64,000 nt of DNA from Conexibacter sp. S30A1 (GTDB lineage: Bacteria; Actinomycetota; Thermoleophilia; Solirubrobacterales; Solirubrobacteraceae): NCBI RefSeq assembly GCF_023330665.1, contig NZ_CP097127.1:248001-312000 (forward strand). Reading direction: 5' to 3'. The position numbers and the translations under genes are program-made. Shown in pieces: positions 1 to 22,999 of the stretch. A model generated the notes under the pieces. That model was not told the origin of the DNA. It made no database searches and saw only the letters and a list, made by a program, of their open reading frames with translations. The stretch's first letter is position 1; every line of letters begins with the position of its first letter.

Positions 1-731
1 TCCCAGAGGTCGATGTACCCACAGCCAAGGAGCTGATTGAGCAGATCCACGAGCACATGAGCGTGGCCGCGCTCGCGGCGATCGTCAGCGAGCTGGAGGC
101 GAAGGTCGCGGCGATGCGGACGTCCCTGGAGCCTCCGGTTCCGGGAGCAGCTGGCCTGCGCCAGGCGCTCGAATGGACCTTCGTCGGACGCCGGCGCGGC
201 AGCGCCGTCCTCGGCATCCGCTCAGACGCTGAGCTCTCCAGCTGGGTCTCCGGTCTGTTTGACTCCTCGGCGCCCCTCGCCGCCCGTTTTGACCGCTTCT
301 GTGCGGCCGCCGGCCCGCTGGCCGGCGGCCAGGCGGCTGAACTGGCCTCTGAGCTGCTGCACTTCACCGCACCCGATCGCCACTGGCTGTGGTCGCGCTG
401 GATGTGGAGCAACGAGAGCCGCACTGGTGCGCTGCCCCTATTGATCGGCGACGATTTCGAGCTCGACGGCGGGTCGCTGGGGGAGACCTATGAGCGGGTC
501 GGCCGGGCGTACGCGATGCTCGACGACTCGCCCGAGGCGTCCGCGTTCCGCCCTGCTGGCGGGGGCAGCCTCGGCACCGACCTGCTGCTCGCCTGCACCT
601 ACGCGGTCTACATGCGCACGGTGCTCGGTCTCAAGATGACCCAGGAGTTCAACGCGCTGGTGCCGGCGATGCCACAACTTGTGCGCCGCCTCCTGGGGGT
701 TCACTTCAAAGCGCTTCAGGAGGTTCGATAG
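1..731 (+). CDS. Hypothetical protein, 5'-truncated by the window (candidate sHdrH-like)
   Basis: The reading frame is open from the first complete codon at position 3, so the start lies outside the window; an internal ATG at 57 is only a fallback start. About 243 residues are visible, with a helical N-terminal stretch and several conserved-looking aromatic positions (for example LWSRWMW near the middle). I see no cysteine cluster, signal peptide or membrane segment, and I do not recognise the family from sequence. The next gene, an HdrB3/HdrD-like protein, starts 4 bases after this stop. In sHdr operons an uncharacterised gene, shdrH, lies between shdrA and the last HdrB-type gene. Position alone therefore suggests this is sHdrH; that is inference. 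The coding region is certain, the function is not. Confidence 0.7.
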   Translation, partial: PEVDVPTAKELIEQIHEHMSVAALAAIVSELEAKVAAMRTSLEPPVPGAAGLRQALEWTFVGRRRGSAVLGIRSDAELSSWVSGLFDSSAPLAARFDRFCAAAGPLAGGQAAELASELLHFTAPDRHWLWSRWMWSNESRTGALPLLIGDDFELDGGSLGETYERVGRAYAMLDDSPEASAFRPAGGGSLGTDLLLACTYAVYMRTVLGLKMTQEFNALVPAMPQLVRRLLGVHFKALQEVR

Positions 732-734
732 CTC

Positions 735-2030
735 ATGCCCATCGGAGGTCAGAAGCAGCCGCCGGTCGTCAGGGAACTCGCCTCGGCGGTGCTGGACGGT
801 GTGGAACTCTCCGCGGAGTGGAACCGTCAGTTCGAGACGCGGGTGATCGAGGATTACGACTCCTCGCCGCTATTCGAGCTCGCGGCGCTCACCGAGGCCG
901 AGTCGATCGAGTGGTGCTACGGATGTGGCCGCTGCGTGCCCGTCTGCCCGGTCGACGTGGTTGGCGAGTACGGGCCGCGGAAGGTGCACCGCAAGCTGCA
1001 GACGGGCATCAACCTGCTCGACGATCCTGACCTCTGGCTGTGCACCACCTGCGGCAACTGCCTGCGAGTCTGTCCCAAGCAGGTAGACATGATCAAGATC
1101 ATGCCTGCGGCCCGCGAGGCGGCGATGGCGCAGGGCAAGGAGGTCCCGGCCGAGCTTCAGGGCGTGTTCGAGTCGACCTTCAAGTACGGCAATGCGCTGG
1201 GTCAGTCGCCGCGCAAGCGCCCCGCGTGGACAAAGGGGGCTGGGGTCCCGGTACGTGACCTCACCAAGGAGCCGGGGCGGGTTGAGTACCTGCTCTACGT
1301 CGAGGACTATTGGGCCTACCACCCCCGCGGGAACGATGCCGCCCAGGCGTTTGCGCGAATCATGCACCGGCTCGGCATCGACTACGGGATTCTCGGTCAC
1401 GAGGAGAAGACGCTCGGTGACTCGCAGCGTTTGGCGGGCGAGAAGGGCCTGTTTGAGATGCTGATGGAGCAGGTGGTGGAGACGCTTGACCGGTTTGAGT
1501 TCGGCGCGATCGTCACGCCCGACCCCCACGGCTTCAACGCGCTGGCAAAGATCTATCCAAAGTACGGTCACGAGTTCAACGTGCTGCACTACACGCAGCT
1601 GTTGGCGCCGCGAATCGGTGAGCTGGAGTTCACCACACCGCTTGATATGCGGGTCACCTTTCACGATCCCTGCTACCTCGGCCGCCACAACGGCGAGTAC
1701 GACGCGCCGCGTCAGATCCTCGAGGCATTGCCAGGGTTGGAGCTGGTCGAGATGATGCGCTGCCGCGAGAACGGCTACTGCTGCGGCGGCGGTGGCGGCG
1801 GGATGTGGCTCGACGGCCACACCGTCAACCACACCAGTGAGCGCCTCTCTGAGCGGCGCGTGCGTGAAGCGGCAGAGACCGGCGCCAACGTGCTCGCCGT
1901 CTGCTGCCCCTATGAGGTGTCCCGCTTCGAGGACGGGGTCAAGTCGACCGGACTTGACGGCCAGCTCAAGGTCCGGGACCTGGCCGAGCTGGTGGATCAG
2001 GCCCTCGGCGGGCCGGGGGCGGTCAGCTGA
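735..2030 (+). CDS. HdrD/HdrB3-like (Fe-S)-binding heterodisulfide reductase-related subunit
   Basis: A 431-residue fusion of an HdrC-like ferredoxin domain and an HdrB-like CCG domain. The N-terminal half has two full [4Fe-4S] motifs: C61-C64-C67-C71P and C103-C106-C109-C113P. The C-terminal half has C313 and then C349C350 (spacing CX35CC), as in the CCG motif that binds the non-cubane cluster of HdrB. The usual final CxxC is replaced by a C390C391P pair, and the first CCG repeat (around 190-300) has lost its cysteines. A good ribosome site (aggagg, 718-724) precedes the ATG. No membrane segment is seen, so it should be cytoplasmic. In EtfAB-containing (type II) sHdr clusters such a fused subunit, HdrB3, links the sHdr complex to EtfAB. 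The gene for lipoate ligase follows after 2 bases. Confidence 0.8.
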   Translation: MPIGGQKQPPVVRELASAVLDGVELSAEWNRQFETRVIEDYDSSPLFELAALTEAESIEWCYGCGRCVPVCPVDVVGEYGPRKVHRKLQTGINLLDDPDLWLCTTCGNCLRVCPKQVDMIKIMPAAREAAMAQGKEVPAELQGVFESTFKYGNALGQSPRKRPAWTKGAGVPVRDLTKEPGRVEYLLYVEDYWAYHPRGNDAAQAFARIMHRLGIDYGILGHEEKTLGDSQRLAGEKGLFEMLMEQVVETLDRFEFGAIVTPDPHGFNALAKIYPKYGHEFNVLHYTQLLAPRIGELEFTTPLDMRVTFHDPCYLGRHNGEYDAPRQILEALPGLELVEMMRCRENGYCCGGGGGGMWLDGHTVNHTSERLSERRVREAAETGANVLAVCCPYEVSRFEDGVKSTGLDGQLKVRDLAELVDQALGGPGAVS

Positions 2031-2032
2031 GC

Positions 2033-3052
2033 GTGGTCCAGGCAACGCTGCGTGTGATCGATGCGGGCGCTGTTGGCGCGGAGCGCTCTCAGGCGCTCTG
2101 GCATGGGCTCGCCGACGCCATGGGGCCGGCTGACGCGCCTGTGCTGTCGTTCTGCCGTCCCGCCGAGCCCTACGTCGGGATCGGATATCACCGGCGGCTG
2201 GACGAGCTTGATCGTGCGGCGTGCGCACGGCTGGGCCTGCCGATTCTGCGTCGCCAGATCGGTGGTGGACCGGTCTATCTCGACTCCGACCAGCTGTTCT
2301 TCCAGCTCACGCTGCCCGCATCCTCGGCGCCGTCGGGCGTCTTGCGGCTCTACGGCGAGCTGCTGGGACCGGCGGTCCAAGCGCTGCGCGCGCTGGGTGT
2401 CGACGCGGCTCTGGCGGGAGTCAACGACATCGTGGCCGGTGGCCGAAAGGTCTCGGGCACCGGTGCGGGTCAGATCGGTGAGGCCGTGACCGTCGTCGGC
2501 AACGTGATGTTCGCATTCGACCACGAGCGGATGAGCGAGGTGCTCGCATTCCCAGATGAGGCGATGCGGGCCGACTTCCTGTGCCTGTTGCGCGCGAACC
2601 TCGGAACGCTCCCTGACCTCGACCCCACGGCCCTGAAGCAGAGCCTGGTGAGCGCCTACGCAGCCGCGCTCGGCCGCGAGCCGGTTCGGGACCTGCTGCG
2701 GTCGGATGAACTGGCGGCGATCAAGCGGTGGGACGAGCGGCTGCGCGACTCGAGCTGGCTCGAGGGGCCCGCGCTGGCGGCGACCCCCGGTCGTCAGGTG
2801 AAGGTCCGTGCCGGCACCTGGCTCTATGACGGCGAGTCGGACGGCCTGCGCGTCCGTGTGCGGGTGGAGGAGGGACTCATAGCTGAAGCCCGGGTGACGG
2901 CCCCCTGGCTGAGCGGTGCCGCCGCAGGGCTCGCGCGTGCTCTCGTCGGGGTGGCTGCGCGACCACACAGCGTGGCCGCGAGCATGGATCGATTCGAACA
3001 CGAGGGGGAGCGTGTGCTCGCTGCGCTCGCTCCCGGATTGGTGGTGCGGTGA
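2033..3052 (+). CDS. Lipoate-protein ligase (LplA-like) of the sHdr-associated lipoate assembly set
   Basis: A 339-residue BPL/LplA-family protein starting with GTG. It shows the substrate-binding segment RQIGGGPVYLD and the catalytic segment GRKVSGTG, with the invariant lysine at about K139. Ligases of this family adenylate lipoate (or octanoate) and attach it to a lysine on a carrier domain. It lies directly before, and overlaps by 4 bases, a gene for a GcvH-like lipoate-binding protein, its likely target. A C-terminal accessory region with a KVRAGTWLYDGE segment is present. Dedicated ligases (sLpl) next to lbpA are typical of sHdr operons; the exact acyl donor cannot be read from sequence. 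Confidence 0.85.
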   Translation: MVQATLRVIDAGAVGAERSQALWHGLADAMGPADAPVLSFCRPAEPYVGIGYHRRLDELDRAACARLGLPILRRQIGGGPVYLDSDQLFFQLTLPASSAPSGVLRLYGELLGPAVQALRALGVDAALAGVNDIVAGGRKVSGTGAGQIGEAVTVVGNVMFAFDHERMSEVLAFPDEAMRADFLCLLRANLGTLPDLDPTALKQSLVSAYAAALGREPVRDLLRSDELAAIKRWDERLRDSSWLEGPALAATPGRQVKVRAGTWLYDGESDGLRVRVRVEEGLIAEARVTAPWLSGAAAGLARALVGVAARPHSVAASMDRFEHEGERVLAALAPGLVVR

Positions 3053-3495
3053 TGATCACGGTGGCCGGCTACGACGTCGATGAAGGGCTCGAATACGATC
3101 CCGATTACAACCTCTGGGTGGAACGGCGCGGCTTGGGTGTGGTGCGTGTTGGCTACGACCCGCTCGGAGCCGAGACGGTTGGTGACATTGTCGCCGTCGC
3201 GCTGGCGGCGCCGGGCCGGGCTCTGGTTCGAGGATCGGCGCTGGCCACCATCGAGGCTGCCAAGTTCGTCGGGCCGCTGCCGGCTCCGGTCGCCGGGGAC
3301 GTGAGGGCCGTCAACGAGTCGCTGGCGCGGAACCCCGGCGCCATCAACTCCGATCCATTCGGCAGCTGGATAGCCGAAATCGACGGTGTCACTGACGACG
3401 CGTTCTCGCACCTGATCGCTGGTGCGGAGGCGATCCGGAGTTGGTTCAGCGCGACGGCCGAGCGTTTTCGCCTGCAGGGGGTGATCGCCGAGTGA
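3049..3495 (+). CDS. lbpA: GcvH-like lipoate-binding protein LbpA, copy 1
   Basis: A 148-residue protein of the GcvH/biotinyl-lipoyl fold. The modification site is K72 in IEAAKFVGPLPAPVAGDV; the K-F-V-G context differs from the K-A-A-S context common in glycine-cleavage GcvH. Two adjacent ATG codons (3049, 3052) are possible starts. No gcvT or gcvP genes lie in the window, whereas an HdrB3-like gene, lipoate ligases and LipS-type enzymes flank it, so a role as sulfur-intermediate carrier in an sHdr pathway is more likely than glycine cleavage. It is the most divergent of the three copies, lacking the ESxKWVG core of the other two, so a specialised role or partner is possible. Confidence 0.82.
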   Translation: MMITVAGYDVDEGLEYDPDYNLWVERRGLGVVRVGYDPLGAETVGDIVAVALAAPGRALVRGSALATIEAAKFVGPLPAPVAGDVRAVNESLARNPGAINSDPFGSWIAEIDGVTDDAFSHLIAGAEAIRSWFSATAERFRLQGVIAE

Positions 3496-4445
3496 CCACC
3501 GTCACAGAGTTGCCCGACGGTATGCGAGTCCGCTTGGAGCGTTTCGGTAAAGACATCCAGTTCTACGCTCCCGGTCTGAAGCGGTGGCAGTCGAGTGAAT
3601 GGACGCCCGAGCGCGCCAATCGCTTCCTGCCGGTGTCGGTGACCGGTACGGCGTGCGCATTGCAGTGCGAACACTGCAAGACCAAGGTGCTCGAGGGCAT
3701 GGTGACGCTCGGTGACGGCCGGGATCTGTTTGCCACTGCCGAGCGCCTGAAGGCGCAGGGTACCGATGGACTGCTGGTCTCGGGTGGTTCGCAGCGCCAC
3801 GGCGGCGTACCGCTCAAGCCACACTTCGACGCGATGCGTCGCGTCCGGGAGGAACTCGGTATGCGGGTGGTCGTCCATTCCGGCGTCGTTTCGCCCGAGC
3901 TCGCTGCGGGGCTCGCTGATGCCGGCGTCGATGGCGTGATGCTCGACATCATCGGCAGCGAGCAGACGATCCGCGAGGTCTACCACCTCGACCTGACGCC
4001 GGCCGACTTTGATCGGTCGCTCGATGTCCTGGCCGAGCGGGGCCTGAGGATCATCCCTCACATCGTTCTCGGCCTTCACTACGGTCAGTTCGTGGGCGAG
4101 TGGGAGGCGCTCGAGATGATCGCAAGCCACCCGGTCTCGACGCTGATCCTCGTGGTTCTGACGCCGCTGGTGGGGACGCCTATGGAGCACGTTCCGCCGC
4201 CGCCGGTCGACGAGGTGACCGATTTCTTCGCTCTCGCACGCGCCCGCATGGCCGATACGAGGATCAACCTCGGTTGCGGGCGCCCGATGGGACAGATGAA
4301 GGTTGCGCTCGACCGGGCTGCGATCGATCAGGGTCTGAACGGGATCGCCTACCCGGCCGAAGGGATGGTCGCCTACGCCCGTGAGCGTGGTCTTGAGCCG
4401 GCCTTTCATGAGTACTGCTGCTCGCTGACCTGGGCTGAGCTTTGA
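3492..4445 (+). CDS. Radical SAM protein, LipS-type lipoyl synthase component (LipS1/LipS2 family)
   Basis: A 317-residue protein starting at GTG 3492, inside the stop of lbpA copy 1 (GTGA overlap). The radical SAM cluster motif is C55-x3-C59-x2-C62 (CALQCEHC). A (beta/alpha)-barrel pattern follows, and the C-terminus carries further cysteines (a CGRP segment and a CC pair near the end) that could ligate an auxiliary cluster. In sHdr-associated lipoate assembly, two radical SAM proteins, LipS1 and LipS2, together insert the two sulfurs into a protein-bound octanoyl chain, instead of one LipA. A second radical SAM gene lies two genes downstream. I cannot say securely which of the two is LipS1. 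Confidence 0.72.
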   Translation: MTTVTELPDGMRVRLERFGKDIQFYAPGLKRWQSSEWTPERANRFLPVSVTGTACALQCEHCKTKVLEGMVTLGDGRDLFATAERLKAQGTDGLLVSGGSQRHGGVPLKPHFDAMRRVREELGMRVVVHSGVVSPELAAGLADAGVDGVMLDIIGSEQTIREVYHLDLTPADFDRSLDVLAERGLRIIPHIVLGLHYGQFVGEWEALEMIASHPVSTLILVVLTPLVGTPMEHVPPPPVDEVTDFFALARARMADTRINLGCGRPMGQMKVALDRAAIDQGLNGIAYPAEGMVAYARERGLEPAFHEYCCSLTWAEL

Positions 4446-5587
4446 GCTTCTGGCGGCTGATTACCGACGACGGCGCCGGCCCTGCCGACGGGCTGGCCGT
4501 CGACGAGGCGTTGATGGTGCACTACGGCCGTGACCATACGGCTGCCTCGGAGGCGGTCATGCGGCTCTACACCTACCGGCCTCACGTCGCGCTGGTCGGC
4601 CGCTACCAGGTGCTCGACGCGGAGGTCAACCGGGCGGCCTGTCAGGAGCGCGGAGTTGGTGTTGGCCGCCGCCCCACCGGTGGTGGCGCGATCATCATGG
4701 GACCGGGTCAGCTCGGCGTCGCCGTTTGCACCCGAGCCCCGGCCGATCTCGGGCCGCGTCAGCTGCTGCGCCAGTATGCCGGCGGGATCGTGGCTGGTCT
4801 CGCCCGCCTCGGCGTGCGCGCGAGCTTCCGAGGCAAGAACGACATCGAGGTCGCTGGACGTAAGCTCGCCGGACTCGGCCTCTACGTCGATGACCGCGGA
4901 GCGCTGCTTTTTCACGCCAGCGTGCTGGCTGACCTCGACGTCGAGCTGATGCTCCAGCTTCTGCACATCCCGGGGGCAAAACTCGAAGACAAGGGCGTCG
5001 CGAGGGTCCATGAGCGTATAACCACGGTGAGCGCCGAGACCGACCGCACCCTCGACGGCGCCGCACTGCGCGCGGCTGTCTGTGACGGGTTCTCGGCGCA
5101 GCTCGGGATCACGCTTCGCGACTCCGAGCTCGACGACGCCGAGCGCGACCGGGCAGCCGAGCTGGAGCGCGAACGTTATGCAGCGCCAGCGTGGATAGCG
5201 GGGCGCGTGCCGGCCGGCGACAGTCATGGCACGGCCGTTGTCAAGACCGGACTCGGGTTGATCCGGGCCTACGCGGGCGTCCAGGACAGCTCGCTCTCCT
5301 CGGTCATGCTCGCGGGTGACTTCTCGGTCATGCCCGAGGAGCTCACGCGGATTGAGGCGGCGCTGCGCTGGAGTCGCGCAGACCCCGAGCGGATCACCGC
5401 GATCGTCGCCGGCGAACTCGCCGGTAGCAGCGTGGATATCGACCCTGGGGTGCTTGCTGGGGTCGTGTGGGCCGCGGCCGAGCGTGCGCTCGAGCGCACC
5501 GGCGGCGCCGTTCCTGTCCGGACCGCCGGATCGTGTTACTTCCCGGCCGTGGTGGCGGCCACCGACGCAAGCGAGGTTTCGCAGTGA
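4442..5587 (+). CDS. Second lipoate-protein ligase (LplA-like) with C-terminal domain
   Basis: A 381-residue BPL/LplA-family protein starting with TTG overlapping the previous stop (TTGA). It has RRPTGGGAIIMG and KNDIEVAGRKLAGLG, with the catalytic lysine at about K141. After residue 255 there is a segment like the small accessory domain of bacterial LplA (KTGLGLIRAYAG, then a DFSVMPEEL region). It sits between the two radical SAM LipS-type genes. Two ligases in one operon might divide octanoate and lipoate substrates, or serve different LbpA copies; this is inference. The family assignment is firm. Confidence 0.85.
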   Translation: MSFWRLITDDGAGPADGLAVDEALMVHYGRDHTAASEAVMRLYTYRPHVALVGRYQVLDAEVNRAACQERGVGVGRRPTGGGAIIMGPGQLGVAVCTRAPADLGPRQLLRQYAGGIVAGLARLGVRASFRGKNDIEVAGRKLAGLGLYVDDRGALLFHASVLADLDVELMLQLLHIPGAKLEDKGVARVHERITTVSAETDRTLDGAALRAAVCDGFSAQLGITLRDSELDDAERDRAAELERERYAAPAWIAGRVPAGDSHGTAVVKTGLGLIRAYAGVQDSSLSSVMLAGDFSVMPEELTRIEAALRWSRADPERITAIVAGELAGSSVDIDPGVLAGVVWAAAERALERTGGAVPVRTAGSCYFPAVVAATDASEVSQ

Positions 5588-6732
5588 GCGCCAGTACCGT
5601 TGAACTTCCCCAGACTACACAGACCGAACATCAGAGTCCCGAGTGGGTTCGCATCTCATACGCAAGCGCGCTGGCGCTGCGCTTCAGATCGGGCCGCTTC
5701 ACGCAGCCGTTTGACTTTGGCGGGATCAATCTGTTGCTCTCCTACGACCGCGGATGCCTGTCGGATTGCGGTTACTGTGGCCTGGCCAGGAACCGTCCCG
5801 GTGACTATGAGGAGAAGTCGTTCATCCGGGTCGACTGGCCCCTGGTGGAGACCGACGAGCTGGTCCGCCGGCTCGTCCGCCACGAGGACAAGCTGACCAG
5901 ACTGTGCATCTCCATGGTCACTCACGGCCGCGCGTACCCTGACACGCTGGACATTGCCGGGCGCATCACCCGCAGCGTGGCCACGCCGCTGTCGCTGCTC
6001 GTAGCGCCGCCGACCCTGAACGAGGCGCGGCTTCAGGCGTTCCGTGACGCTGGCGCCGACATGATCGGGATCGGCCTTGATGCGGTGACCGAGGATCTCT
6101 TCAGATCGCTGCGCAGCGATGTGCCGAAGGGCGGCCTGAAGTGGAGCCAGTACTGGCGGATTGTGGATGCGGCGCGGCTGATCTTTGGCGCGTGGAAGGT
6201 GAACTGCCACACCCTTGTCGGGCTGGGCGAGAGCGACGCTGATCTGATGGGGATATTCACCCGGCTGCTGGAGGGCCAGATCTTCTCCTACCTGTTCTGC
6301 TTCAACCCGGAGCCTGACTCGCGCATGGGGGCGCTTCCCAAGACGCCGCTGCAACGGTGGCGACGCGTCCAGCTTGCCAAGTTCCTGCTCGAGGAGCGCG
6401 GGATAGCGCCGGAGCAGTTCCGCTATGACGACGCTGGCACGCTTGTCCGGATTCACGCGCCACGGGGGTTGGTGGAGGCTGTGGTCGCCGACGGTCATGC
6501 GTTCATGACCAACGGCTGCCCGTCATCCGGTGGCGAGCCGGGCTGCACTCGGCCGATGGGCAGCTGGCGGCCGACCGAGCCCCCGCGCGACTTCCCTTGG
6601 CGGCCACGCGGTGTTGAGTTAGACGGCATCCGAGCCGCGCTCGACCTTGACAGCCTGGTCAGTCCCGGCCCCGGACCCAGCCGGCCGCCTGAGCTTTGCG
6701 CACCGCCCGCGGCGGGGCGGGTAACCGAATAA
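5584..6732 (+). CDS. Radical SAM protein, second LipS-type lipoyl synthase component
   Basis: A 382-residue protein starting at GTG 5584, which overlaps the stop of the ligase gene. The motif C58-x3-C62-x2-C65 (CLSDCGYC) is the radical SAM iron-sulfur site. The middle resembles biotin-synthase-like enzymes (NCHTLVGLGES segment). Near the C-terminus the segment NGCPSSGGEPGCTRP gives two further cysteines, candidates for an auxiliary cluster. Together with the radical SAM gene at 3492 this makes the expected LipS1/LipS2 pair. The next gene, etfB, begins 6 bases after the stop with its own ribosome site, so the lipoate-assembly block and the electron-transfer block are parts of the same operon. 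Confidence 0.72.
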   Translation: MSASTVELPQTTQTEHQSPEWVRISYASALALRFRSGRFTQPFDFGGINLLLSYDRGCLSDCGYCGLARNRPGDYEEKSFIRVDWPLVETDELVRRLVRHEDKLTRLCISMVTHGRAYPDTLDIAGRITRSVATPLSLLVAPPTLNEARLQAFRDAGADMIGIGLDAVTEDLFRSLRSDVPKGGLKWSQYWRIVDAARLIFGAWKVNCHTLVGLGESDADLMGIFTRLLEGQIFSYLFCFNPEPDSRMGALPKTPLQRWRRVQLAKFLLEERGIAPEQFRYDDAGTLVRIHAPRGLVEAVVADGHAFMTNGCPSSGGEPGCTRPMGSWRPTEPPRDFPWRPRGVELDGIRAALDLDSLVSPGPGPSRPPELCAPPAAGRVTE

Positions 6733-6738
6733 GGAGAG

Positions 6739-7515: not shown

Positions 7516-7525
7516 GGGAGAGAGT

Positions 7526-8485
7526 ATGAGCAACGACATCTTCGTTCTGGTGGAGCACCACGGCGGTGCGATTTCGGAGACGACCAACGAACTCTTCGGC
7601 ATGGCCAGGGGGCTCGCTGAGGCGTCCGGTGGGGCGGTCGTCGGCTGCCTGCTGGGCAGCGGCGCGAGCAGCCTGGCGGAGGGGCTCGCGGCTGACGCCG
7701 TGCTGTCTGTGCAAGCCCCAGAGCTTGCCGCGTTTGTGCCCGAGGCGTACGCCGCGACATTGGCCGCGCTGGTCGCGGAGCGCGATCCACGGGTGCTGCT
7801 GATCGCCAACACGACGGTCGGAATGGATGTGGCGGGCGCCGTCTCGGGTCGCACAGGCCGTCCGCTCGTCGCCTACTGCTCGGCGATCACCGTCGAGGGA
7901 GACACGCTCGTGGTGACCAGCCAGGTCTATGGTGGCAAGCTCAACGCGGAGGTGCAGACCGCCAGCGGTGCGATCGTGTCGGTCGTCGGCGGCTCGGCGC
8001 CCGCGGCCAGCGGCGGCTCACCGACCGTTGAGACTGTTGCGCCACCGGATCTGAGCGGCCTGCGCACGACCTTCGTGGCTCGTGTTGAAGCGCAGTCAGG
8101 CGACGTCGATATCACCGGCGAGGAGATCCTTGTCTCGGTCGGTCGCGGGATCGGTGGTGAGGACAACATCGAGCTTGCCCAGGAACTGGCCGACGCCCTG
8201 GGTGCAACCGTGTCCGCGTCACGGCCCGTCACCGACGCCGGCTGGCTGCCCAAGAGCCGCCAGGTGGGCAAGTCAGGGCGCAAGGTCAAACCGAAGCTCT
8301 ACCTCGCCTGCGGGATCTCCGGCGCCCCGGAGCACCTGGAGGGCATGAGCGACGCGGAGCTGATCATCGCCATCAACACGGATGAGAAGGCTCCGATCTT
8401 CGACGTTGCTCACTACGGTGCCACAGCTGACCTATTCGACCTGCTCCCGGCTCTGACAGACCAGGTGAGGGCGGTGAGCACGTGA
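7526..8485 (+). CDS. etfA: Electron transfer flavoprotein subunit alpha
   Basis: A 319-residue EtfA with a strong ribosome site (gggagag). The C-terminal FAD-binding domain is typical: SVGRGIGGEDNIELAQELADAL, ASRPVTDAGWLP, YLACGISGAPEHLEGM and INTDEKAPIFDVAHYG. It forms a heterodimer with the upstream EtfB. Its stop overlaps the start of the membrane HdrD-like gene by 4 bases, so the three are translationally coupled, as expected for an ETF and its dedicated quinone oxidoreductase. Confidence 0.95.
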   Translation: MSNDIFVLVEHHGGAISETTNELFGMARGLAEASGGAVVGCLLGSGASSLAEGLAADAVLSVQAPELAAFVPEAYAATLAALVAERDPRVLLIANTTVGMDVAGAVSGRTGRPLVAYCSAITVEGDTLVVTSQVYGGKLNAEVQTASGAIVSVVGGSAPAASGGSPTVETVAPPDLSGLRTTFVARVEAQSGDVDITGEEILVSVGRGIGGEDNIELAQELADALGATVSASRPVTDAGWLPKSRQVGKSGRKVKPKLYLACGISGAPEHLEGMSDAELIIAINTDEKAPIFDVAHYGATADLFDLLPALTDQVRAVST

Positions 8486-10557
8486 GTCATGTGGCGTTCC
8501 CGATCGTCTTCGGGATCGCGCTGCTCGTCTTCGTCGGGACGATCGGCGGCCGGATCAGACTGCTCGCCACGGCCCGCCCGGCGCGTCGTTTCGACCGGCT
8601 TCCCGAGCGCGTGCAGCGGACCATCGTCTACGCCTTCGGGCAGAAGAAGTTCCTGACCGGCGAGCAGCCGGCCGGCATCGCGCACGCGTTGATCTTCTGG
8701 GGGTTTGTCGTCCTCGGCCTTCAGGTCATCACCCAATTCGGGCGGGCCTTAAGTGTCAACTTCAACATCCCAGGATTCGGCCCCAACCAGCTGCTCGGTC
8801 CACCGTTCTTCGTGGCGCGCGATCTGCTGGAGCTGGTCGTGATCGTGGCTGTGAGCTACATGCTCTACCGACGGCTGGTCGTGCACACACCACGGTTGTT
8901 CGGGCTGGGACGGGCAGAGGAGCGCTACCGCGGAGCGCCGCACTGGGAGGGGATCCTGATCCTGGTCTTCATCCTCTTCATCATGGTCGGCGGCCTGCTC
9001 GCCGACGCTGGCCGTCTGGTCTGGCTCGACATCCACGGCAACGAGCGCGAGTTCGCACCGCTCACCGCGCTGGTTGCGGACATCATTGGCGGCCTGGGCC
9101 GGAGCGGCGGACACACCGTCAGCGAGATCGGCTGGTGGTTGCACAACCTGACGGTGCTGACCTTCCTCAACCTGCTGCCGCTATCGAAGCACTTCCATAT
9201 CATCACCGCGGTTCCGAACGTCTTCTTCGGAGAGCTACCGCCCAAGCAGGTGGCCCGCAAGCCGGGCGCCCTGCAGACGCCGCCCGCCGGAGTCGCACGC
9301 CTTGAGCCGCCACCCACCGGTCTCACCGGCATCGCCTCGCTCGCCGACGTCAGCTGGAAGCAGGTGCTCGACGCGTTCTCGTGTACCGAATGCGGACGCT
9401 GCACCGCGAAGTGCCCCGCGACCGCGAGCGGCAGTCCGCTCGCCCCGCGCCAGCTGGTGCTCGACATCCGCGACCGGCTCTACGCGCACCCCGCCGAACA
9501 GCGCGGCGCCGTCGCGGGCGCGGCGCCACTGATCAGCGAGGATGTCCTCTGGTCGTGCACGACCTGCATGGCCTGCGTCGAGGCCTGCCCGGTCGGCATC
9601 GAGCACGTGCCGACGATTGTCGACATGCGCCGCAGCCTCGTCGACCAGGGGCGCATGGAGCCGCTGCTACAGCAGACGCTCGAGAACTTCGCAAAGCAGG
9701 GAAACTCATACGGGAAGTCCTCGAGGATGCGTGCCCGGTGGACCAAGGGCTTGGACTTCACCATCCCCGACGCCCGCACCGAGCCGGTCGACTACCTCTG
9801 GTTCGTCGGTGACTTCGCCTCCTTCGACGAGCGCGTCCAGACCGCTTCGCAGCGCGTGGCACGCATCCTCAACGAGACGGGGATTTCGTTCGGTCTTCTC
9901 TACGACGGTGAGCGCAACGCTGGCAACGACGTGCGTCGAGTCGGTGAGGAGGGTCTGTTCGAGATGCTCGTCGAGCACAACATGGCCATGCTCAGGGACG
10001 CCAGCTTCGAGGCGATCTTCACCACCGACCCGCACTCACTCAACACCCTGCGCAACGAGTATCCGGCGTACGGGCTCGACAAGCCGGTCTACCACTACAC
10101 CGAGCTGCTGGCAGAACTCGTAGCTGACGGCCGCATCAAGCTGACAACGCCGCTCACCGGTACCCGTGTCACCTATCACGACCCGTGCTATCTGGCCCGT
10201 TACAACCGGATCACGGACGCGCCCCGCAAGCTGATCGCCGCGACCGGCGCAGAGCTCGTGGAGATGCCGCGCCATGGCACCAACACCTTCTGCTGTGGGG
10301 CGGGCGGCGGGCGGATCTGGATGGACGACTCCAAGCTCGAGGAGCGACCCAGCGAACAGCGGATCAGGGAGGCGCAGGAGCTCGGCACCATTGACTATTT
10401 CGTCGTCAGCTGCCCGAAGGATCTGGCGATGTACTCGGATGCGGCCAAGACGGTGGGAGCGTCGTTTGAGGTCGCCGAGCTCACCGCGCTCGTGGAGCGG
10501 GCTTTGGGAGTGGCGGAGCCTGAGGTTCTCGCCGCGCCCGCCGGGAGAGAGCGGTGA
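8482..10557 (+). CDS. Membrane-bound HdrD-like EtfAB:quinone oxidoreductase (EMO/EtfD-like)
   Basis: A 691-residue fusion protein, GTG start. The N-terminal ~250 residues hold about five hydrophobic segments (around 4-21, 65-85, 108-125, 155-173, 216-235) with histidines suited to haem b, like a NarI/HdrE-type cytochrome b domain. Then come two [4Fe-4S] motifs, C301-C304-C307-C311P and C359-C362-C365-C369P, and a CCG domain with C569, C604C605 and C644. Proteins of this build (EtfD, Rv0338c type) pass electrons from EtfAB to menaquinone. As in the HdrB3-like protein upstream, the final CxxC is reduced to one cysteine (CPKD). It overlaps etfA by 4 bases and the next gene by 4 bases. Confidence 0.88.
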   Translation: MSHVAFPIVFGIALLVFVGTIGGRIRLLATARPARRFDRLPERVQRTIVYAFGQKKFLTGEQPAGIAHALIFWGFVVLGLQVITQFGRALSVNFNIPGFGPNQLLGPPFFVARDLLELVVIVAVSYMLYRRLVVHTPRLFGLGRAEERYRGAPHWEGILILVFILFIMVGGLLADAGRLVWLDIHGNEREFAPLTALVADIIGGLGRSGGHTVSEIGWWLHNLTVLTFLNLLPLSKHFHIITAVPNVFFGELPPKQVARKPGALQTPPAGVARLEPPPTGLTGIASLADVSWKQVLDAFSCTECGRCTAKCPATASGSPLAPRQLVLDIRDRLYAHPAEQRGAVAGAAPLISEDVLWSCTTCMACVEACPVGIEHVPTIVDMRRSLVDQGRMEPLLQQTLENFAKQGNSYGKSSRMRARWTKGLDFTIPDARTEPVDYLWFVGDFASFDERVQTASQRVARILNETGISFGLLYDGERNAGNDVRRVGEEGLFEMLVEHNMAMLRDASFEAIFTTDPHSLNTLRNEYPAYGLDKPVYHYTELLAELVADGRIKLTTPLTGTRVTYHDPCYLARYNRITDAPRKLIAATGAELVEMPRHGTNTFCCGAGGGRIWMDDSKLEERPSEQRIREAQELGTIDYFVVSCPKDLAMYSDAAKTVGASFEVAELTALVERALGVAEPEVLAAPAGRER

Positions 10558-11015
10558 GTTCCACGACGCCCTGTGTATCGCCGCAGCTGGCACGTTCGCT
10601 CGCGGCGCGGCTAAGGGACGCGACCGCGGCCGGCGAGCAGCTCGCCTCCTTTGCGTTCGGCGAGGATGCTCCCACTCCCGGCCCGGAGCTGGTCGACGGC
10701 GACGAGCTCGACGTCGCTCACGACTTCCTGCTGCGCACCCTGGGCGAGATTAGCGATCCGGTCAACTGGGAGATCCTTGCCGCAACGGTACCTGGCGGCG
10801 GGATCGGGCTTGACGATCTGGCGGCGCAGCTGCAGCGGCCACGCCTGGCCGTCACCGAGCGGGTCAACGCGTTGATCCAGCTCGGACTGATGAGCCGTGA
10901 CCTCGAGCACGACCGCGTCTGCGCCTCACCGGCCGGCGATGGGCTGTTTGAGCTGATCCGCGAGCTGGACGCAGAGATCGCGCGATGGCTGTCGAAGCGG
11001 CGGCGGGCCGGATGA
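10554..11015 (+). CDS. Small winged-helix-like protein (possible ArsR-type regulator)
   Basis: A 153-residue protein with a GTG start inside the stop of the membrane oxidoreductase. Residues ~60-140 look like a winged helix-turn-helix: NWEILAATVPGGGIGLDDLAAQL, a recognition-helix-like RPRLAVTERVNALIQLGLM, then a wing-like VCASPAGDGLFELI. It has two cysteines (in PCVSP and VCASP). ArsR-type repressors responding to sulfur are known for sHdr/Sox gene control in Hyphomicrobium, which makes a regulatory role attractive. The fold is my reading of the pattern and the role is inference from context; a structural role in the complex is also possible. Confidence 0.6.
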   Translation: MSSTTPCVSPQLARSLAARLRDATAAGEQLASFAFGEDAPTPGPELVDGDELDVAHDFLLRTLGEISDPVNWEILAATVPGGGIGLDDLAAQLQRPRLAVTERVNALIQLGLMSRDLEHDRVCASPAGDGLFELIRELDAEIARWLSKRRRAG

Positions 11016-11016
11016 G

Positions 11017-11322
11017 ATGCACTGTCCGCTCTGCGAGTTCGAAGACACCAGGGACAGCGTTCACGGGCACCTGGTACAAGCCCATGGTGAGGCCGTCGAG
11101 ACCTGGACCGTCGGCAGTGGCCGCATGCGTTACAGGATTGTCTGTCCTCGCTGTGGCGCCGAGCACGAGGCGAGAGTTAAGCCTCGCGGTCAGGATCCCG
11201 TGTTCCTGGAGACGTTCTCCCGAGAGATAAGGATGGTGGCGTTTGACATGCTGATCAACCACATCGTGGCGGAGCACGAGGCAACGGTGACATCCGAGCA
11301 AGAGGCTGGGAGTGAGAGATGA
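11017..11322 (+). CDS. Small zinc-finger-like protein of unknown function
   Basis: A 101-residue protein whose start is one base after the preceding stop. It has two C-x2-C ... H-x(n)-H patterns: CPLC followed by HGHLVQAH near the N-terminus, and CPRC (after residue 40) followed by H...H in INHIVAEH. This suggests two C2H2-like zinc-binding modules. I know of no named family. Its stop overlaps the start of lbpA copy 2 by 4 bases, so it is made together with the lipoate-binding proteins. It might be a redox or sulfur sensor, a zinc structural protein or a chaperone; nothing in the sequence decides. Confidence 0.65.
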   Translation: MHCPLCEFEDTRDSVHGHLVQAHGEAVETWTVGSGRMRYRIVCPRCGAEHEARVKPRGQDPVFLETFSREIRMVAFDMLINHIVAEHEATVTSEQEAGSER

Positions 11323-11759
11323 CGACGGTCAACGGCTGCAACATCCCCGACGACCTTTACTACCTGGTTGACAAGCACGTCTGGGCACGACCCGAGGGCG
11401 ACGCGGTCGTGGTCGGTCTGACCGATGTCGCACAGAACCTCGCCAAGGGCATCATCTCAGTAACCACCAAGCGTGCCGGCAAGTCGCTTGCCAAGGGCAA
11501 GAGCATCGGCACTGTGGAGAGCTCCAAGTGGGTCGGACCGGTACCAGCGCCGGTGAGTGGCGAGATCGTTGAGGTCAACGACGCGCTGACCAGCGACCCA
11601 GGGCTGCTGAACCGGGATCCCTACGGGCTCGGCTGGATCGCAAAGCTCAGGGCCGACGACTGGAGCGCGGATTCGGCCGACCTGGTCACGGGCTCGGCTG
11701 GAGTGGACGCCTACCGGGCTTTCCTTGACGCACAGGGGATCTCCTGCCAGGAGCAGTGA
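11319..11759 (+). CDS. lbpA: GcvH-like lipoate-binding protein LbpA, copy 2
   Basis: A 146-residue biotinyl-lipoyl-fold protein. The predicted lipoylated residue is K70 in VESSKWVGPVPAPVSGEIVEVND. The N-terminus (DDLYYLVDKHVWARPEGDAVVVGLTDVAQ) has the full GcvH-like sandwich, and NRDPYGLGWIAKL follows. The K-W-V-G context fits sHdr-type LbpA better than glycine cleavage GcvH. ATG start, 4-base overlap with the zinc-finger-like gene; copy 3 begins one base after its stop. Of the three copies, this and copy 3 are the closest pair. Confidence 0.88.
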   Translation: MTTVNGCNIPDDLYYLVDKHVWARPEGDAVVVGLTDVAQNLAKGIISVTTKRAGKSLAKGKSIGTVESSKWVGPVPAPVSGEIVEVNDALTSDPGLLNRDPYGLGWIAKLRADDWSADSADLVTGSAGVDAYRAFLDAQGISCQEQ

Positions 11760-11760
11760 G

Positions 11761-12216
11761 ATGCAGGTCTACGCCGGTTGCGCGCTTCCCGAGGAGTATC
11801 TCTACCACCTCGACTTTGACGTCTGGGTGAGGCTGGAAGCCGATGGCAGTGCGCGCCTGGGGATGACTGACATCGCCCAGACGCTCTGCGGACGCCTGGT
11901 CTCGATCTCATTTCAAAAGCGTCCAGGTGACCGCGTCAGGCGCGGCCGGACGCTGGTGGTGATCGAGAGCGCAAAGTGGGTGGGCCCGTTCCGCTCGCCG
12001 CTCAGCGGCGAGGTGCTGGAGATCAACCAGGACGCGTTCCGCGCTGACATTGCAGTCGTCAACCGCGATCCCTATGGTGCCGGTTGGCTGATGCGACTGG
12101 ACCCTGTAGCCCTCGCGCAGGAGCGCGACGACCTGGTCGACGGCTTGGCTGCCTTCCCGGTCGTGCGGGAGCGAATCGAGCGCGAGCAGATACGCTGCAT
12201 GCGCTGCGTCGAGTGA
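11761..12216 (+). CDS. lbpA: GcvH-like lipoate-binding protein LbpA, copy 3
   Basis: A 151-residue biotinyl-lipoyl-fold protein starting at ATG 11761, one base after the copy 2 stop. The predicted lipoylated residue is K72 in VIESAKWVGPFRSPLSGEVLEIN, followed by NRDPYGAGWLMRL as in copy 2. Unlike copy 2 it ends with two cysteines (CMRC near the C-terminus), which could be redox active or bind sulfur. A longer frame upstream to 11725 exists, but it lies within copy 2 and lacks any GcvH-like residues. Confidence 0.87.
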   Translation: MQVYAGCALPEEYLYHLDFDVWVRLEADGSARLGMTDIAQTLCGRLVSISFQKRPGDRVRRGRTLVVIESAKWVGPFRSPLSGEVLEINQDAFRADIAVVNRDPYGAGWLMRLDPVALAQERDDLVDGLAAFPVVRERIEREQIRCMRCVE

Positions 12217-12887
12217 TGGCGGGCGTGATCCTCCTGCGCACGACTGATTCGCTCGTCGTCCGGCGAGTCGCGGCGGTCGCCGTCGCGGTCGGCCTGGATA
12301 TGGCGACCGCGATCACTACGCCTCTGCCGGAGCCCGCGGCTCTGACGGGACTGGTTGTCGAGCTCGGAGGAGAGGCCTCGCTGGAGGTCATCGCGGACAC
12401 CCGTCGCGCCGCCCCCGACTGCACGATCGTTGCCTTTCTGCCGCGGCCCGATTCGGAGTTGTGGCTGCGCGCGGAGGCCGCCGGCGCCGACGTGGTCACC
12501 ACGCGCGGCCGTGTGGACCGCGCGCTGGCGGACACGCTCGCCGACCGGCTCAGTGGCCGGCGCCGGGCCAGGCGGATCCGGCTAGCGCCGCTTGCGGAGT
12601 TCGCCGGTCGCCTCGGGTATGTCGGCCGCGTGGCGGAAACGCCTGTCGGGCCGATCTCGCTCTATCACCTCGACGGTGCGCTGTGGGCGATCGCCGACAG
12701 ATGTCCGCACGCGGGTGCGTCGCTCTGCGAGGGCGAGCTGCACGGAGACGTCGTCACCTGCCCGCGGCACGGAAGTCAGTTTCGGGTCACCGACGGCGCC
12801 CGGGTCCGAGGGCCAGCCGACGTCGGCGTCTCCACCTACCCGGTGCTGGTGGAGGTTGGAGAGGCCTTTGTGGAGATGCCCGGTTGA
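12216..12887 (+). CDS. Pseudo-receiver / Rieske [2Fe-2S] fusion protein
   Basis: A 223-residue protein starting at ATG 12216, overlapping the previous stop by one base (TGATG). Residues ~1-115 look like an alpha/beta receiver-type domain (hydrophobic beta strands LTGLVVEL, CTIVAFLP and ADVVTTRG) but lack the phosphate-accepting aspartate. Residues ~125-220 form a Rieske ferredoxin domain with C163-P-H165 and C182-P-R-H185, the two-Cys two-His ligands. I know of no standard family with this order. Rieske domains carry single electrons; the neighbouring FCSD-like flavoprotein may be its partner. No signal peptide is visible, so it should be cytoplasmic. Confidence 0.75.
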   Translation: MAGVILLRTTDSLVVRRVAAVAVAVGLDMATAITTPLPEPAALTGLVVELGGEASLEVIADTRRAAPDCTIVAFLPRPDSELWLRAEAAGADVVTTRGRVDRALADTLADRLSGRRRARRIRLAPLAEFAGRLGYVGRVAETPVGPISLYHLDGALWAIADRCPHAGASLCEGELHGDVVTCPRHGSQFRVTDGARVRGPADVGVSTYPVLVEVGEAFVEMPG

Positions 12888-14017
12888 GCAGCGACAGGCA
12901 TGTGGTTGTTGTCGGCGCGGGTCCGGGCGGGCTCGCCGCTGCCGCGCGGCTGCGCGATCGCGGCGGCGGTCGCGTTGCGGTCACCCTCATCGCACCTGGG
13001 CTGCGCGCGACCTTCCTCGGTGGCACTCTGGATGTCGCGCTTGGTGACCAGGAGCCCACGGCGTTCTCGGCTCCAGTTGACATGGCTGGCGTTCGCTGCA
13101 TCGATGCTGCGGTCAGTGCTGTCGCCCCCGACGGGGTCGCGCTCGGCGACGATCGTATTGCTGCCGACGCGGTGATCGCGGCTCCTGGGCTTGTGGTCGA
13201 CGCCAACAGCATGCCGAGTTGGTCCCGGGTGGTGGCGGCTTGGGACCCCTATGGGGCGCGGCGGTTGCGTGAGCGGGCGCTTGGCCTGCGCGCGGGTCGC
13301 GTGCTCGTAGCGATCACCGCCGTACCCTACCGCTGCCCGCCTGCGCCGCTTGCGCTCGCAGTCGGTCTGGCCGGCCGCCACCTGGAGGCCAGACACGCGG
13401 TCAGGGTCACCGTGGCGACGCCCGAAGCGGTGCCCTTGGCCGGTGTCGGCGGCGAGGCGCCGGCGTTTGTGAGCGACGCCTGCGCCGCCGCGGGCGTCAC
13501 GCTTGAGCGCGGTTTCGTGCCCGACTTGCAGGCGAGCGCCGATGGGGTGCTGCGCGCCACCGACGGGCGCGAGATACCCTACGACGGAGCCTTCCTGGTA
13601 CCGGCTCACCGTCGCGCGGCCTGCCTCGAGGGGCTTCCGGGCACCGGACCGCTGGTCGCTGTCGGCGAACGCGGGAGCGTCGACGGCAGCCCGCTGTATG
13701 TGGTCGGTGACGCGGCGGGTACTGGCCTTCCACGCGCGGCCGGCTTCGCCAGCGGGGCCGCGGTGGCGGCCGCTGACGGGGCGCTCGAGTCGCTGGGCAT
13801 CGCTCCGGCGCCGCCACCGCCAGCCCTGGAGGCCTCGTGTTTCATGTTTCATCACGGCCGGGCGATCAGCCGGATCGGCGTGCGTTACACCGGAGACGGC
13901 CCGTCGGTGCGGATCGACGGGCCGAGCCGCGATCTGTGGCCCGCGCGTACGGGCGAGCTGCGCCGTTTTTTGGAAGCCGCGGGCGCGCCGGGGAGTGGTG
14001 TCACGGCAGCGGGCTGA
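12884..14017 (+). CDS. FAD-dependent oxidoreductase, FCSD/SQR-like (SoxF-like) flavoprotein
   Basis: A 377-residue two-dinucleotide-binding flavoprotein starting at TTG 12884 (TTGA overlap with the Rieske gene). It opens with VVVVGAGPGGLAAAARL, the FAD Rossmann motif, and has VVGDAAGTGLPRAAGFASGAA near the C-terminus. Two cysteines match, by context, the redox pair of flavocytochrome c sulfide dehydrogenase: C151 in PYRCPPAP and C319 in ASCFMFHHGR. There is no Tat signal and no cytochrome c partner gene in the window. Sulfide or polysulfide oxidation linked to the sHdr operon is the likely role. It is distinct from LipT, the oxidoreductase of lipoate assembly, but I cannot exclude such a role. 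Confidence 0.75.
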   Translation: MSSDRHVVVVGAGPGGLAAAARLRDRGGGRVAVTLIAPGLRATFLGGTLDVALGDQEPTAFSAPVDMAGVRCIDAAVSAVAPDGVALGDDRIAADAVIAAPGLVVDANSMPSWSRVVAAWDPYGARRLRERALGLRAGRVLVAITAVPYRCPPAPLALAVGLAGRHLEARHAVRVTVATPEAVPLAGVGGEAPAFVSDACAAAGVTLERGFVPDLQASADGVLRATDGREIPYDGAFLVPAHRRAACLEGLPGTGPLVAVGERGSVDGSPLYVVGDAAGTGLPRAAGFASGAAVAAADGALESLGIAPAPPPPALEASCFMFHHGRAISRIGVRYTGDGPSVRIDGPSRDLWPARTGELRRFLEAAGAPGSGVTAAG

Positions 14018-21798: not shown

Positions 21799-21883
<85 letters not shown>

Positions 21884-22646: not shown

Positions 22647-22995
22647 CCGCAGGCTGAGCAGCCGCGGAGGTGTACGCGCCTTCGAGGAAAGTCCGGACAT
22701 CACAGGGCAGGGTGGTCGGTAACGCCGACCCGGGGAAACCCGCGGGAAAGTGCCACAGAAAAGACACCGCCTAAGCCTCGGTGCAAGTCTCGACGTGATA
22801 CGACGGGGCTGACGAGGCCGGTAAGGGTGAAATGGTGCGGTAAGAGCGCACCGGCGTCGCGGCGACGCGGCGGCCAGGTAAACCCCACCCGATGCAAGGC
22901 CGAGCAGAACCGCTTGTAGGTTGCCCGCCAAGGTTCGGGTAGGCCGCTTTAGATGGATGGCTGCTCCAGACAGGATCCGGCTTACAGGCCTGCTA
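22647..22995 (+). ncRNA. rnpB: RNase P RNA (type A-like)
   Basis: About 349 bases with the conserved core of bacterial RNase P RNA: gaggaaagtccggac near the 5' side, gaaacccgcgggaaagtgccacagaaa, ggtaagggtgaaatggtgcggtaagagcgcacc, ccaggtaaaccccaccc with gagca, agatggatgg, and acaggatccggcttac at the 3' side. Terminal pairing of gcaggc (22649-22654) with gcctgc (22988-22993) sets the ends to within a few bases. It matures tRNA 5' ends. Confidence 0.96.
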
Positions 22996-22999
22996 AGGA

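What the first reader, a model, noticed from the sequence alone, without database searches (positions are those of the whole stretch)
1..14017. sHdr/LbpA-like sulfur oxidation operon in an actinobacterial chromosome
Fifteen overlapping genes plus a 5'-truncated one combine an HdrB3-like protein, EtfAB, an HdrD-like membrane quinone oxidoreductase, three lipoate-binding proteins, two lipoate ligases, two LipS-type radical SAM enzymes, a Rieske fusion and an FCSD-like flavoprotein. This matches the EtfAB-containing type II sHdr arrangement, in which sulfane sulfur on lipoate-binding protein is oxidised to sulfite. In this presumed soil actinobacterium it would imply unrecognised lithoheterotrophy or organosulfur use. 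What is seen: the gene set and overlaps. What is inferred: the pathway.
Basis: partly seen in the sequence, partly recalled or inferred. Interest (0 to 1): 0.85.

Follow-up and report, generated by a model that had tools for sequence, protein, structure and literature searches.

The report
Complete sulfur-oxidation operon in Conexibacter relative
This bacterium, a close relative of the actinobacterium Conexibacter, carries a complete and tightly packed set of genes of a kind already known to oxidise sulfur inside the cell, including one unusual lipoate-carrying protein that may belong to cofactor assembly rather than to sulfur handling.

Summary
In detail: positions 1-14017 carry 15 complete genes plus the 3' part of a sixteenth. 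The missing half lies just upstream in the same genome: a divergent ArsR-type regulator and a DsrE2-like gene, then TusA, a DsrE-family protein, sHdrC1, sHdrB1, sHdrA and the start of sHdrH. Together they meet the published definition of a type II sHdr system (shdrC1B1AHB3 plus etfAB in one cluster). The core order recurs in genus-mates, among them Conexibacter sp. DBS9H8, and in several phyla. Cao et al. 2018 already reported EtfBA-linked hdr-lbpA clusters in Actinobacteria, so this is a new member of a known kind.

Points I did not find in print: (1) LbpAa has no cysteine and belongs to a separate clade (EAxK motif) present on 35 of 35 pieces of type II loci that hold LipS1; I propose a role in lipoate assembly. 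(2) The membrane protein is EtfD-like but lacks the cluster D1 cysteines. (3) sHdrH is modelled as an all-helical fold without a PDB match. SoxB and RuBisCO were not found, so lithoheterotrophy is plausible. Activity is untested.

The parts
1..731 (+). sHdrH, 3' part; whole gene is G000:C1:247964-248731 (255 aa). Upstream genes outside the window, in G000:C1 coordinates: DsrE2-like 243198-243785 (-), ArsR-type regulator 243814-244173 (-), TusA 244340-244582 (+), DsrE-family 244592-244966 (+), sHdrC1 244966-245697 (+), sHdrB1 245718-246920 (+), sHdrA 246907-247962 (+)
   Evidence: Upstream stretch L009 and its frames, Pfam/NCBIfam, TusA. H has no Pfam or NCBIfam hit; assigned by place and by homologues on 79 of 80 pieces
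735..2030 (+). sHdrB3 (fused C2-B2 type: two 4Fe-4S motifs plus CCG domain)
   Evidence: Pfam Fer4 and CCG; 12 cysteines invariant in 72 of 72 rows
2033..3052 (+). Lpl1, lipoate-protein ligase type (GTG start)
   Evidence: PF21948; K139 kept in 44 of 44 rows; nearest solved chains are lipoate-protein ligases
3049..3495 (+). LbpAa, lipoate-binding protein without any cysteine, lysine motif EAAKF
   Evidence: GCV_H; motif and cysteines; own clade
3492..4445 (+). LipS1, radical SAM lipoyl synthase
   Evidence: NF053742 230.9 bits against cut-off 230; Cys55, 59, 62 in 32 of 32 rows
4442..5587 (+). Lpl2, lipoate-protein ligase type (TTG start)
   Evidence: PF21948; K141 in 31 of 31 rows
5584..6732 (+). 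LipS2, radical SAM lipoyl synthase
   Evidence: NF053743 166.9 bits, below its cut-off of 270; Cys58, 62, 65 in 26 of 26 rows
6739..7515 (+). EtfB, electron transfer flavoprotein beta
   Evidence: PF01012
7526..8485 (+). EtfA, electron transfer flavoprotein alpha with FAD domain
   Evidence: PF00766 and PF01012; solved Etf alpha chains
8482..10557 (+).
   Evidence: 9ojn E 1.4e-90; ligand comparison; tree
10554..11015 (+). hyp1, conserved, no Pfam hit
   Evidence: No family; homologues in 4 of 4 sHdr-positive genus-mates and, more weakly, in L097, L106, L120 and others
11017..11322 (+). small conserved protein with CxxC pairs (zinc-ribbon-like by eye), no Pfam hit
   Evidence: No family; homologues in genus-mates and other type II loci
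11319..11759 (+). LbpAb, lipoate-binding protein with N- and C-terminal cysteines, motif ESSKW
11761..12216 (+). LbpAc, lipoate-binding protein with N- and C-terminal cysteines, motif ESAKW
12216..12887 (+). Rieske domain at the C-terminus of a 223-aa protein; N-terminal half without Pfam hit
   Evidence: PF00355; CPH and CPRH motifs by eye
12884..14017 (+). FCSD-like flavoprotein (TTG start)
   Evidence: 5n1t, 3vrd, 1fcd at 30-37 bits; conserved in 4 of 4 sHdr-positive genus-mates

Best explanation
The locus is a complete, regulated type II sHdr-LbpA operon for cytoplasmic oxidation of sulfane sulfur, 21 co-directional genes from TusA to the FCSD-like protein. Proposed route, with the chemistry inferred: TusA and the DsrE-family protein hand sulfane sulfur to the cysteine-bearing, lipoylated LbpAb and LbpAc; sHdrA-B1-C1-B3, with H, oxidise it to sulfite; EtfAB takes the electrons to an EtfD-type membrane protein with two cubane clusters and conserved histidines, which reduces menaquinone. 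LbpAa, Lpl2, LipS1 and LipS2 form a separable lipoate-assembly unit. A divergent ArsR-type regulator probably controls the promoter. With no SoxB and no RuBisCO found, the likely role is supplementary energy from sulfur in a heterotroph. Shown: genes, order, conserved ligands, phylogeny. Inferred: substrate, product, electron path, regulation, role.
For: C1, B1, A and H directly upstream; all parts of the published definition in one cluster (for the definition, for the order); cluster cysteines invariant over 71-81 rows per subunit; HdrA nearest to 6tjr; TusA in 5 of 5 sHdr-positive and 2 of 23 other genus genomes, p 2.1e-4; LbpA apart from GcvH; same core order on 69 of 80 pieces from several phyla; EtfD-type neighbour; promoter with divergent ArsR-type gene.
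Against: No activity, expression or substrate data. No SoxB (0 of 28), and the only Oxidored_molyb protein is of a kind found in 24 of 28 genus genomes, so neither the source of sulfane sulfur nor the fate of sulfite is explained. The regulator lacks the two-cysteine pattern of sHdrR (by eye; PMC12423496 passages). LipS2 is below its family cut-off. The EtfD-type protein has lost the D1 ligands.
Confidence: 0.86

Rival explanations
1. The cluster serves mainly organosulfur use: sulfane sulfur from methanethiol, dimethyl sulfide or similar feeds sHdr, and the carbon is eaten, rather than lithotrophy on inorganic sulfur.
For: No SoxB in 28 genus genomes and no RuBisCO in the 5 bearers. Cao 2018 lists organisms oxidising volatile organic sulfur among the bearers of such clusters (section 5).
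Against: No organosulfur gene is in or beside the cluster among the genes typed; methanethiol oxidase and DMS genes were not searched genome-wide.
Confidence: 0.2
2. LbpAa is a third working carrier of the pathway (for example a dithiol that reduces persulfides or passes electrons), not an assembly carrier.
For: [quoted passage not shown] the lipoyl lysine is kept; six genomes have a cysteine-bearing LbpA next to LipS1 instead, so LipS1 does not need a cysteine-free one; no transfer enzyme was recognised and both ligases keep their lysine.
Against: On the 80 pieces it goes with LipS1 in 35 of 35 cases, and in G139 it stays with the lip genes about 100 kb away from the shdr genes.
Confidence: 0.4
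3. The three LbpA proteins are glycine-cleavage GcvH and the cluster is a C1 or glycine system.
For: The nearest NCBIfam models are GcvH models; LbpAb even passes the PRK01202 cut-off (126.9 against 117 bits).
Against: Separate from 16 GcvH rows at 100/100; the genome has a GcvH elsewhere with ESVKA; the clusters are full of Hdr, TusA and DsrE genes.
Confidence: 0.02
4. The cluster is a decaying or silent remnant.
For: Only 5 of 28 genus genomes have it.
Against: All frames open, ligands kept, same gene set in four other genomes of the genus at 53-98% identity.
Confidence: 0.03

Closest known systems
Type II sHdr system (Group III of Cao et al. 2018, PMC6067878; definition in PMC11582611)
   Same: shdrC1B1AHB3 and etfAB in one cluster, several lbpA genes, lipoate ligase and two radical SAM genes, in an actinobacterium
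   Different: No difference that would exclude it. Added here: a cysteine-free LbpA class tied to LipS1, an EtfD-type protein without D1 ligands, a Rieske fusion and an FCSD-like flavoprotein at the 3' end
Type I sHdr of Hyphomicrobium denitrificans
   Same: sHdrA, B1, C1, H, LbpA, LipS1/LipS2 and ligase; HdrA 302 bits to 6tjr (identity of 6tjr recalled)
   Different: C2 and B2 fused as B3; EtfAB and EtfD-type protein in the cluster; no Sox genes found
Mycobacterial EtfD (9ojn, PMC13083937)
   Same: Membrane Fe-S protein next to or fed by EtfAB; two cubane sites and matching histidines
   Different: The four D1 cysteines and the last D2 cysteine are replaced; places matched by order and spacing, not by a direct alignment to 9ojn
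GcvH lipoyl-relay hub of Bacillus subtilis (LipM, LipL; described in PMC6067878, passages)
   Same: A small lipoyl protein tied to assembly enzymes; analogue proposed here for LbpAa
   Different: Different motif (EAxK against ESVKA) and clade; both ligases keep the ligase lysine and no amidotransferase was identified

Membership tests
Type II sHdr | shdrC1, B1, A, H and B3 in one syntenic cluster | tested here: met
   definition from PMC11582611
Type II sHdr | etfAB in the same cluster | tested here: met
   EtfB 6739-7515 and EtfA 7526-8485
Type II sHdr | C2 and B2 fused as B3 (type I has them apart) | tested here: met
   One 431-aa protein with two 4Fe-4S motifs and a CCG domain
Type II sHdr | No SoxT transporter (reported for type II genomes) | not tested
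   No search for SoxT was made
Type II sHdr | Oxidation of sulfane sulfur to sulfite | not testable with these tools
   Needs growth or enzyme assays
LbpA (as described by Cao 2018) | Conserved lipoyl lysine | tested here: met
   LbpAa, LbpAb and LbpAc
LbpA (as described by Cao 2018) | Two conserved cysteines, near the N- and the C-terminus | tested here: not met
   Met by LbpAb and LbpAc; not met by LbpAa, which has none. LbpAa is therefore called LbpA-like, of the EAxK clade
LbpA | Falls outside GcvH | tested here: met
   GcvH 100/100 against all LbpA rows; GcvH rows only from the same order
LipS1/LipS2/sLpl lipoate assembly | LipS1, LipS2 and a ligase together | tested here: met
   LipS1 over its cut-off, LipS2 under its cut-off but best hit; radical SAM cysteines kept
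EtfD | Cysteine ligands of clusters D1 and D2 | tested here: not met
   D1 cysteines replaced in the 34 rows, last D2 cysteine Asp in 33 of 33; 7 of 7 EtfD-type rows keep all. Called EtfD-type only
EtfD | Two cubane 4Fe-4S sites and two heme histidines | tested here: met
   Eight Cys in 34 of 34; His239 34 of 34; His68 31 of 31 with 3 gaps
sHdrR regulator | Two conserved cysteines, Cys50 and Cys116 in H. denitrificans | tested here: not met
   By eye on the translation: its only two cysteines are four residues apart (VCSVVC); PMC12423496 passages say many such regulators lack the pair

The most novel reading that the evidence does not exclude
In type II sHdr systems the cysteine-free LbpAa (EAxK clade) is not a sulfur carrier but the dedicated carrier on which Lpl2, LipS2 and LipS1 build the lipoyl group, which is then passed to the cysteine-bearing LbpA proteins that carry the sulfur. 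This would be a second protein-borne lipoate relay besides the GcvH hub of Bacillus subtilis.
Probability: 0.35. Interest if true: 0.65.

Novelty: new member of a known kind. Interest (0 to 1): 0.42.

Why it matters
It adds a complete type II sHdr operon, with its own sulfur-transfer proteins and regulator, in a Conexibacter-like lineage; no title or abstract start listed by my searches is about sulfur oxidation there (listings only). It also gives a testable distinction inside a known system: one class of LbpA has lost the cysteines while keeping the lipoyl lysine and stays with the lipoate-making enzymes, and the EtfD-type protein suggests how type II systems may feed electrons to menaquinone. 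Named bearers among the 80 loci (Conexibacter sp. DBS9H8, two Amycolatopsis, Ferrithrix thermotolerans) make tests possible, although only Ferrithrix and Amycolatopsis carry names of described species.

Tried and rejected
Rejected: LbpA as GcvH. Rejected: a truncated or decayed cluster (frames open, upstream half present). Considered and not supported: Lpl1 as a LipL/LipM-type cysteine transferase; it keeps a lysine (K139, 44 of 44 rows) that I take, from memory, for the ligase lysine, and its conserved Cys64 (43 of 44) lies just before the RRxxGGG motif, not where I recall the LipM/LipL cysteine. Not general: 'LipS1 always sits next to a cysteine-free LbpA'. It holds for the 35 pieces with LipS1 among 80, but of 23 LipS1 loci found in 396 sampled genomes of the phylum, 4 (all with sHdrA) have the EAxK type on the piece held, 6 have a cysteine-bearing ES-type LbpA and no close sHdrA (best 34-36% identity), and 13 have none on the piece, some of which are short. 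Withdrawn on checking: that type II loci without LipS1 lack the EAxK LbpA. RuBisCO absence is not significant (0 of 5 against 5 of 23, p 0.55). Fold search of H: best E 0.77. HdrA in plasmid records: two matches, 35-37% identity. In the EtfD-type tree the sHdr label needs 4 changes, so I do not claim one clade for it; only the group of 7 EtfD-type rows with the own paralogue is clean (100, quick tree). Rows dropped before the LbpA trees: 4 doubtful or truncated ones (L117, L063 LbpAc, L093 19531, L042 LbpAa) and 18 of 34 GcvH rows, thinned at random apart from the four of sHdr-positive genomes. Only the best 80 of 291 confirmed HdrA loci were returned.
Full report
WHAT IS THERE. The window is G000:C1:248001-312000 of a 3,458,291-base, single-contig genome estimated 93.8% complete. 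Positions 1-14017 hold 16 genes on the + strand in the order H (3' part), B3, Lpl1, LbpAa, LipS1, Lpl2, LipS2, EtfB, EtfA, EtfD-type, hyp1, CxxC protein, LbpAb, LbpAc, Rieske fusion, FCSD-like. Nine of 15 junctions overlap and no gap exceeds 10 bases. The next gene downstream is a MOSC protein on the other strand.

THE MISSING HALF. A DsrE2-like gene (below the NCBIfam cut-off, above Pfam's) and an ArsR-type regulator lie divergently. A TTGACA-N17-TATGCT promoter stands before TusA; similar boxes with 18-base spacing occur in L039 and L040, none in L122. In L039 a perfect palindrome, CAAGTTTTC-N8-GAAAACTTG, overlaps the -35 box; L122 has a similar one, and in G000 only a degenerate form is seen by eye. 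From TusA to FCSD the operon has 21 genes.

WHOSE GENOME. Other close bearers are metagenome bins LSA2.bin53, DBS1-3.bin51 and clean439. sHdrA was found in 5 of 28 genus genomes: the own one and four at 87-96% identity. A further genus genome, G004, has only 33-34% hits; none of the 33 other genomes of family and order searched has a hit at E <= 1e-20. Several of these genomes are incomplete, so 5 of 28 is a lower bound.

IS IT TYPE II sHdr. PMC11582611 (passages) requires shdrC1B1AHB3 and etfAB in one cluster; this is met. Cysteines expected to hold clusters are invariant across relatives: HdrA 4 (81 rows), C1 8 (71), B1 8 (75), B3 12 (72). HdrA's best solved relative is 6tjr at 302 bits; that this is the Hyphomicrobium sHdrA is recalled. 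TusA accompanies sHdr in the genus: 5 of 5 bearers against 2 of 23 others, p 2.1e-4. A scan of GTDB genomes with an HdrA alignment confirmed 291 relatives, of which the best 80 were returned. C1-B1-A-H-B3 is on 69 of these 80 pieces and, with EtfA and EtfB, on 50; many pieces are cut. They come from Actinomycetota, Chloroflexota, Bacteroidota, KSB1, Rokubacteria and others. On a quick HdrA tree the label Actinomycetota needs two changes (shuffled mean 24), consistent with inheritance mostly within the phylum. Cao et al. 2018 (PMC6067878, sections 5 and 6 read) named an EtfBA-linked arrangement Group III, with Actinobacteria and Firmicutes as bearers and two or three LbpAs. The kind is therefore known.

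LbpA AND GcvH. In 138 distinct rows the lysine motif falls in three classes: GcvH ESVKA-type (34 rows, no terminal cysteine), LbpA ESxK (64 rows: 60 with N- and C-terminal cysteines, 4 with the N-terminal one only, of which one is a row with a doubtful end), LbpA EAxK (39 rows: 38 without either, 1 with a cysteine counted on the N side); one fragment fits none. On a careful tree of 116 rows each class is one side of a branch: GcvH 100/100, EAxK 99/96, ESxK 95/92. All GcvH rows came from genomes of the same order, which limits this test. LbpAb and LbpAc are ESxK; LbpAa is EAxK and has no cysteine. Cao et al. state that the two cysteines are strictly conserved except in some archaeal LbpAs. I could not read their supplementary tables, so the EAxK class may have been outside their alignment.

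LbpAa AND THE ASSEMBLY ENZYMES. Of the 80 pieces, 35 hold LipS1 and all 35 hold an EAxK LbpA; 3 more hold EAxK without LipS1, in each case at the end of the contig (L044, L050, L086); 42 hold neither, but many of these are cut before the place where the genes could stand. In G139, Lpl1-LbpAa-LipS1-Lpl2-LipS2 lies about 100 kb from shdrA and still carries the EAxK LbpA. This suggests that LbpAa belongs to lipoate assembly. Against a simple rule, six genomes without close sHdrA have an ES-type, cysteine-bearing LbpA next to LipS1. No transfer enzyme was identified, both ligases keep a lysine that I take for the ligase lysine, and a role of LbpAa as a redox carrier of the pathway is not excluded. 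I give the assembly-carrier reading 0.35.

ELECTRON PATH. The membrane protein is nearest to mycobacterial EtfD, which PMC13083937 (passages; Discussion read) shows as an electron wire of Fe-S clusters and a b heme to menaquinone. In 34 sHdr-type rows (two of them, from G132 and G085, without known context) the eight cubane cysteines and His239 are invariant, and His68 in all 31 that are not gapped. Where the 7 EtfD-type rows, own paralogue included, have cysteine, the 34 rows have Asp (34), Asn (31; Thr 2, Ser 1), Asp (34), Ser or Thr (23 and 11) and Asp (33, one gap). By order and spacing these are the four D1 cysteines and the last D2 cysteine of the paper; I did not align to 9ojn itself. 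The paper notes that FadF and DgcB also lack the D1 cysteines and probably take electrons at D2, so the route remains plausible. That the sHdr complex donates to EtfAB is inferred from gene order.

OTHER PARTS. H gave a confident all-alpha model (pLDDT 88.9, 64 sequences) with no PDB match at E <= 0.001. The Rieske fusion and FCSD-like protein are conserved in four of four other sHdr-positive genus genomes, and the Rieske fusion also in L043, L073 (Ferrithrix), L112 and L121. By eye the FCSD-like protein has PYRCPP in own and four relatives, and the second motif EASC in own and two; the printed sequences of the other two end before it. Its partner is unknown.

PHYSIOLOGY. SoxB: 0 of 28 genus genomes. 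RuBisCO large subunit: 0 of 5 bearers, 5 of 23 others, not significant. LipA is present in the own genome, so LipS1/LipS2 are an additional lipoate route. The only Oxidored_molyb protein is of a family found in 24 of 28 genus genomes. With a genome estimated 93.8% complete, these absences are provisional. The sulfur donor compound and the fate of sulfite are unknown.

LITERATURE LIMITS. Ten searches were made in an open-access library. In the listings (25 of 99 shown; none; 15 of 60 shown) no title or abstract start is about sulfur oxidation by Conexibacter; I opened none of those papers for it. A cysteine-free bacterial LbpA did not appear in the listings or in the passages. Tanabe et al. 2024 (PMC11094781), cited by PMC11582611 for type II, is not held and may contain either.

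Noticed in passing
L187, L189-L192 (G338, G411, G441, G126, G367) and L188 (G065): LbpA-type proteins with N- and C-terminal cysteines and an ES-G-K-F/W motif stand beside LipS1 and an Lpl2-type ligase in genomes whose best HdrA hits are only 34-36% identical, so an LbpA system may exist without close sHdrA.
   Followed up: partly
G000:C1:2746757-2748673 (-), L013: A second EtfD-type protein in the genome keeps the cysteines that the sHdr-linked one has lost and groups with ordinary actinobacterial EtfD, so two parallel Etf-to-quinone branches may exist.
   Followed up: partly
L024 (G132:C108:11727-13658): An EtfD-type protein that groups with the sHdr-linked ones in a genome (89% complete) where no HdrA match was found.
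   Followed up: no
G004:C171:8561-13957 (L019, L020, L172, L176): A genus genome without the close sHdrA has two TusA genes next to long HdrA-like frames (33-34% identity), perhaps another sulfur system.
   Followed up: no
L009:6174-6339, L039 and L122 upstream of TusA: Palindromes of the form AGTTTTC-N8-GAAAACT between the divergent ArsR-type gene and TusA, overlapping the -35 box in L039: a candidate operator.
   Followed up: partly
window 36233-38464 (+): A two-domain radical SAM protein with a CofH/MqnC C-terminal region, FbiC-like by size and make-up (name recalled).
   Followed up: no
window 22649-22997 (+), 21799-21883 (-), 62746-62828 (+): RNase P class A RNA and two tRNA genes.
   Followed up: no
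L009:94-4720: Upstream of the sHdr genes lies a block of amine-oxidase-type flavoprotein, DUF1365, cyclopropane-fatty-acid-synthase-type methyltransferase and a photolyase on the other strand.
   Followed up: no
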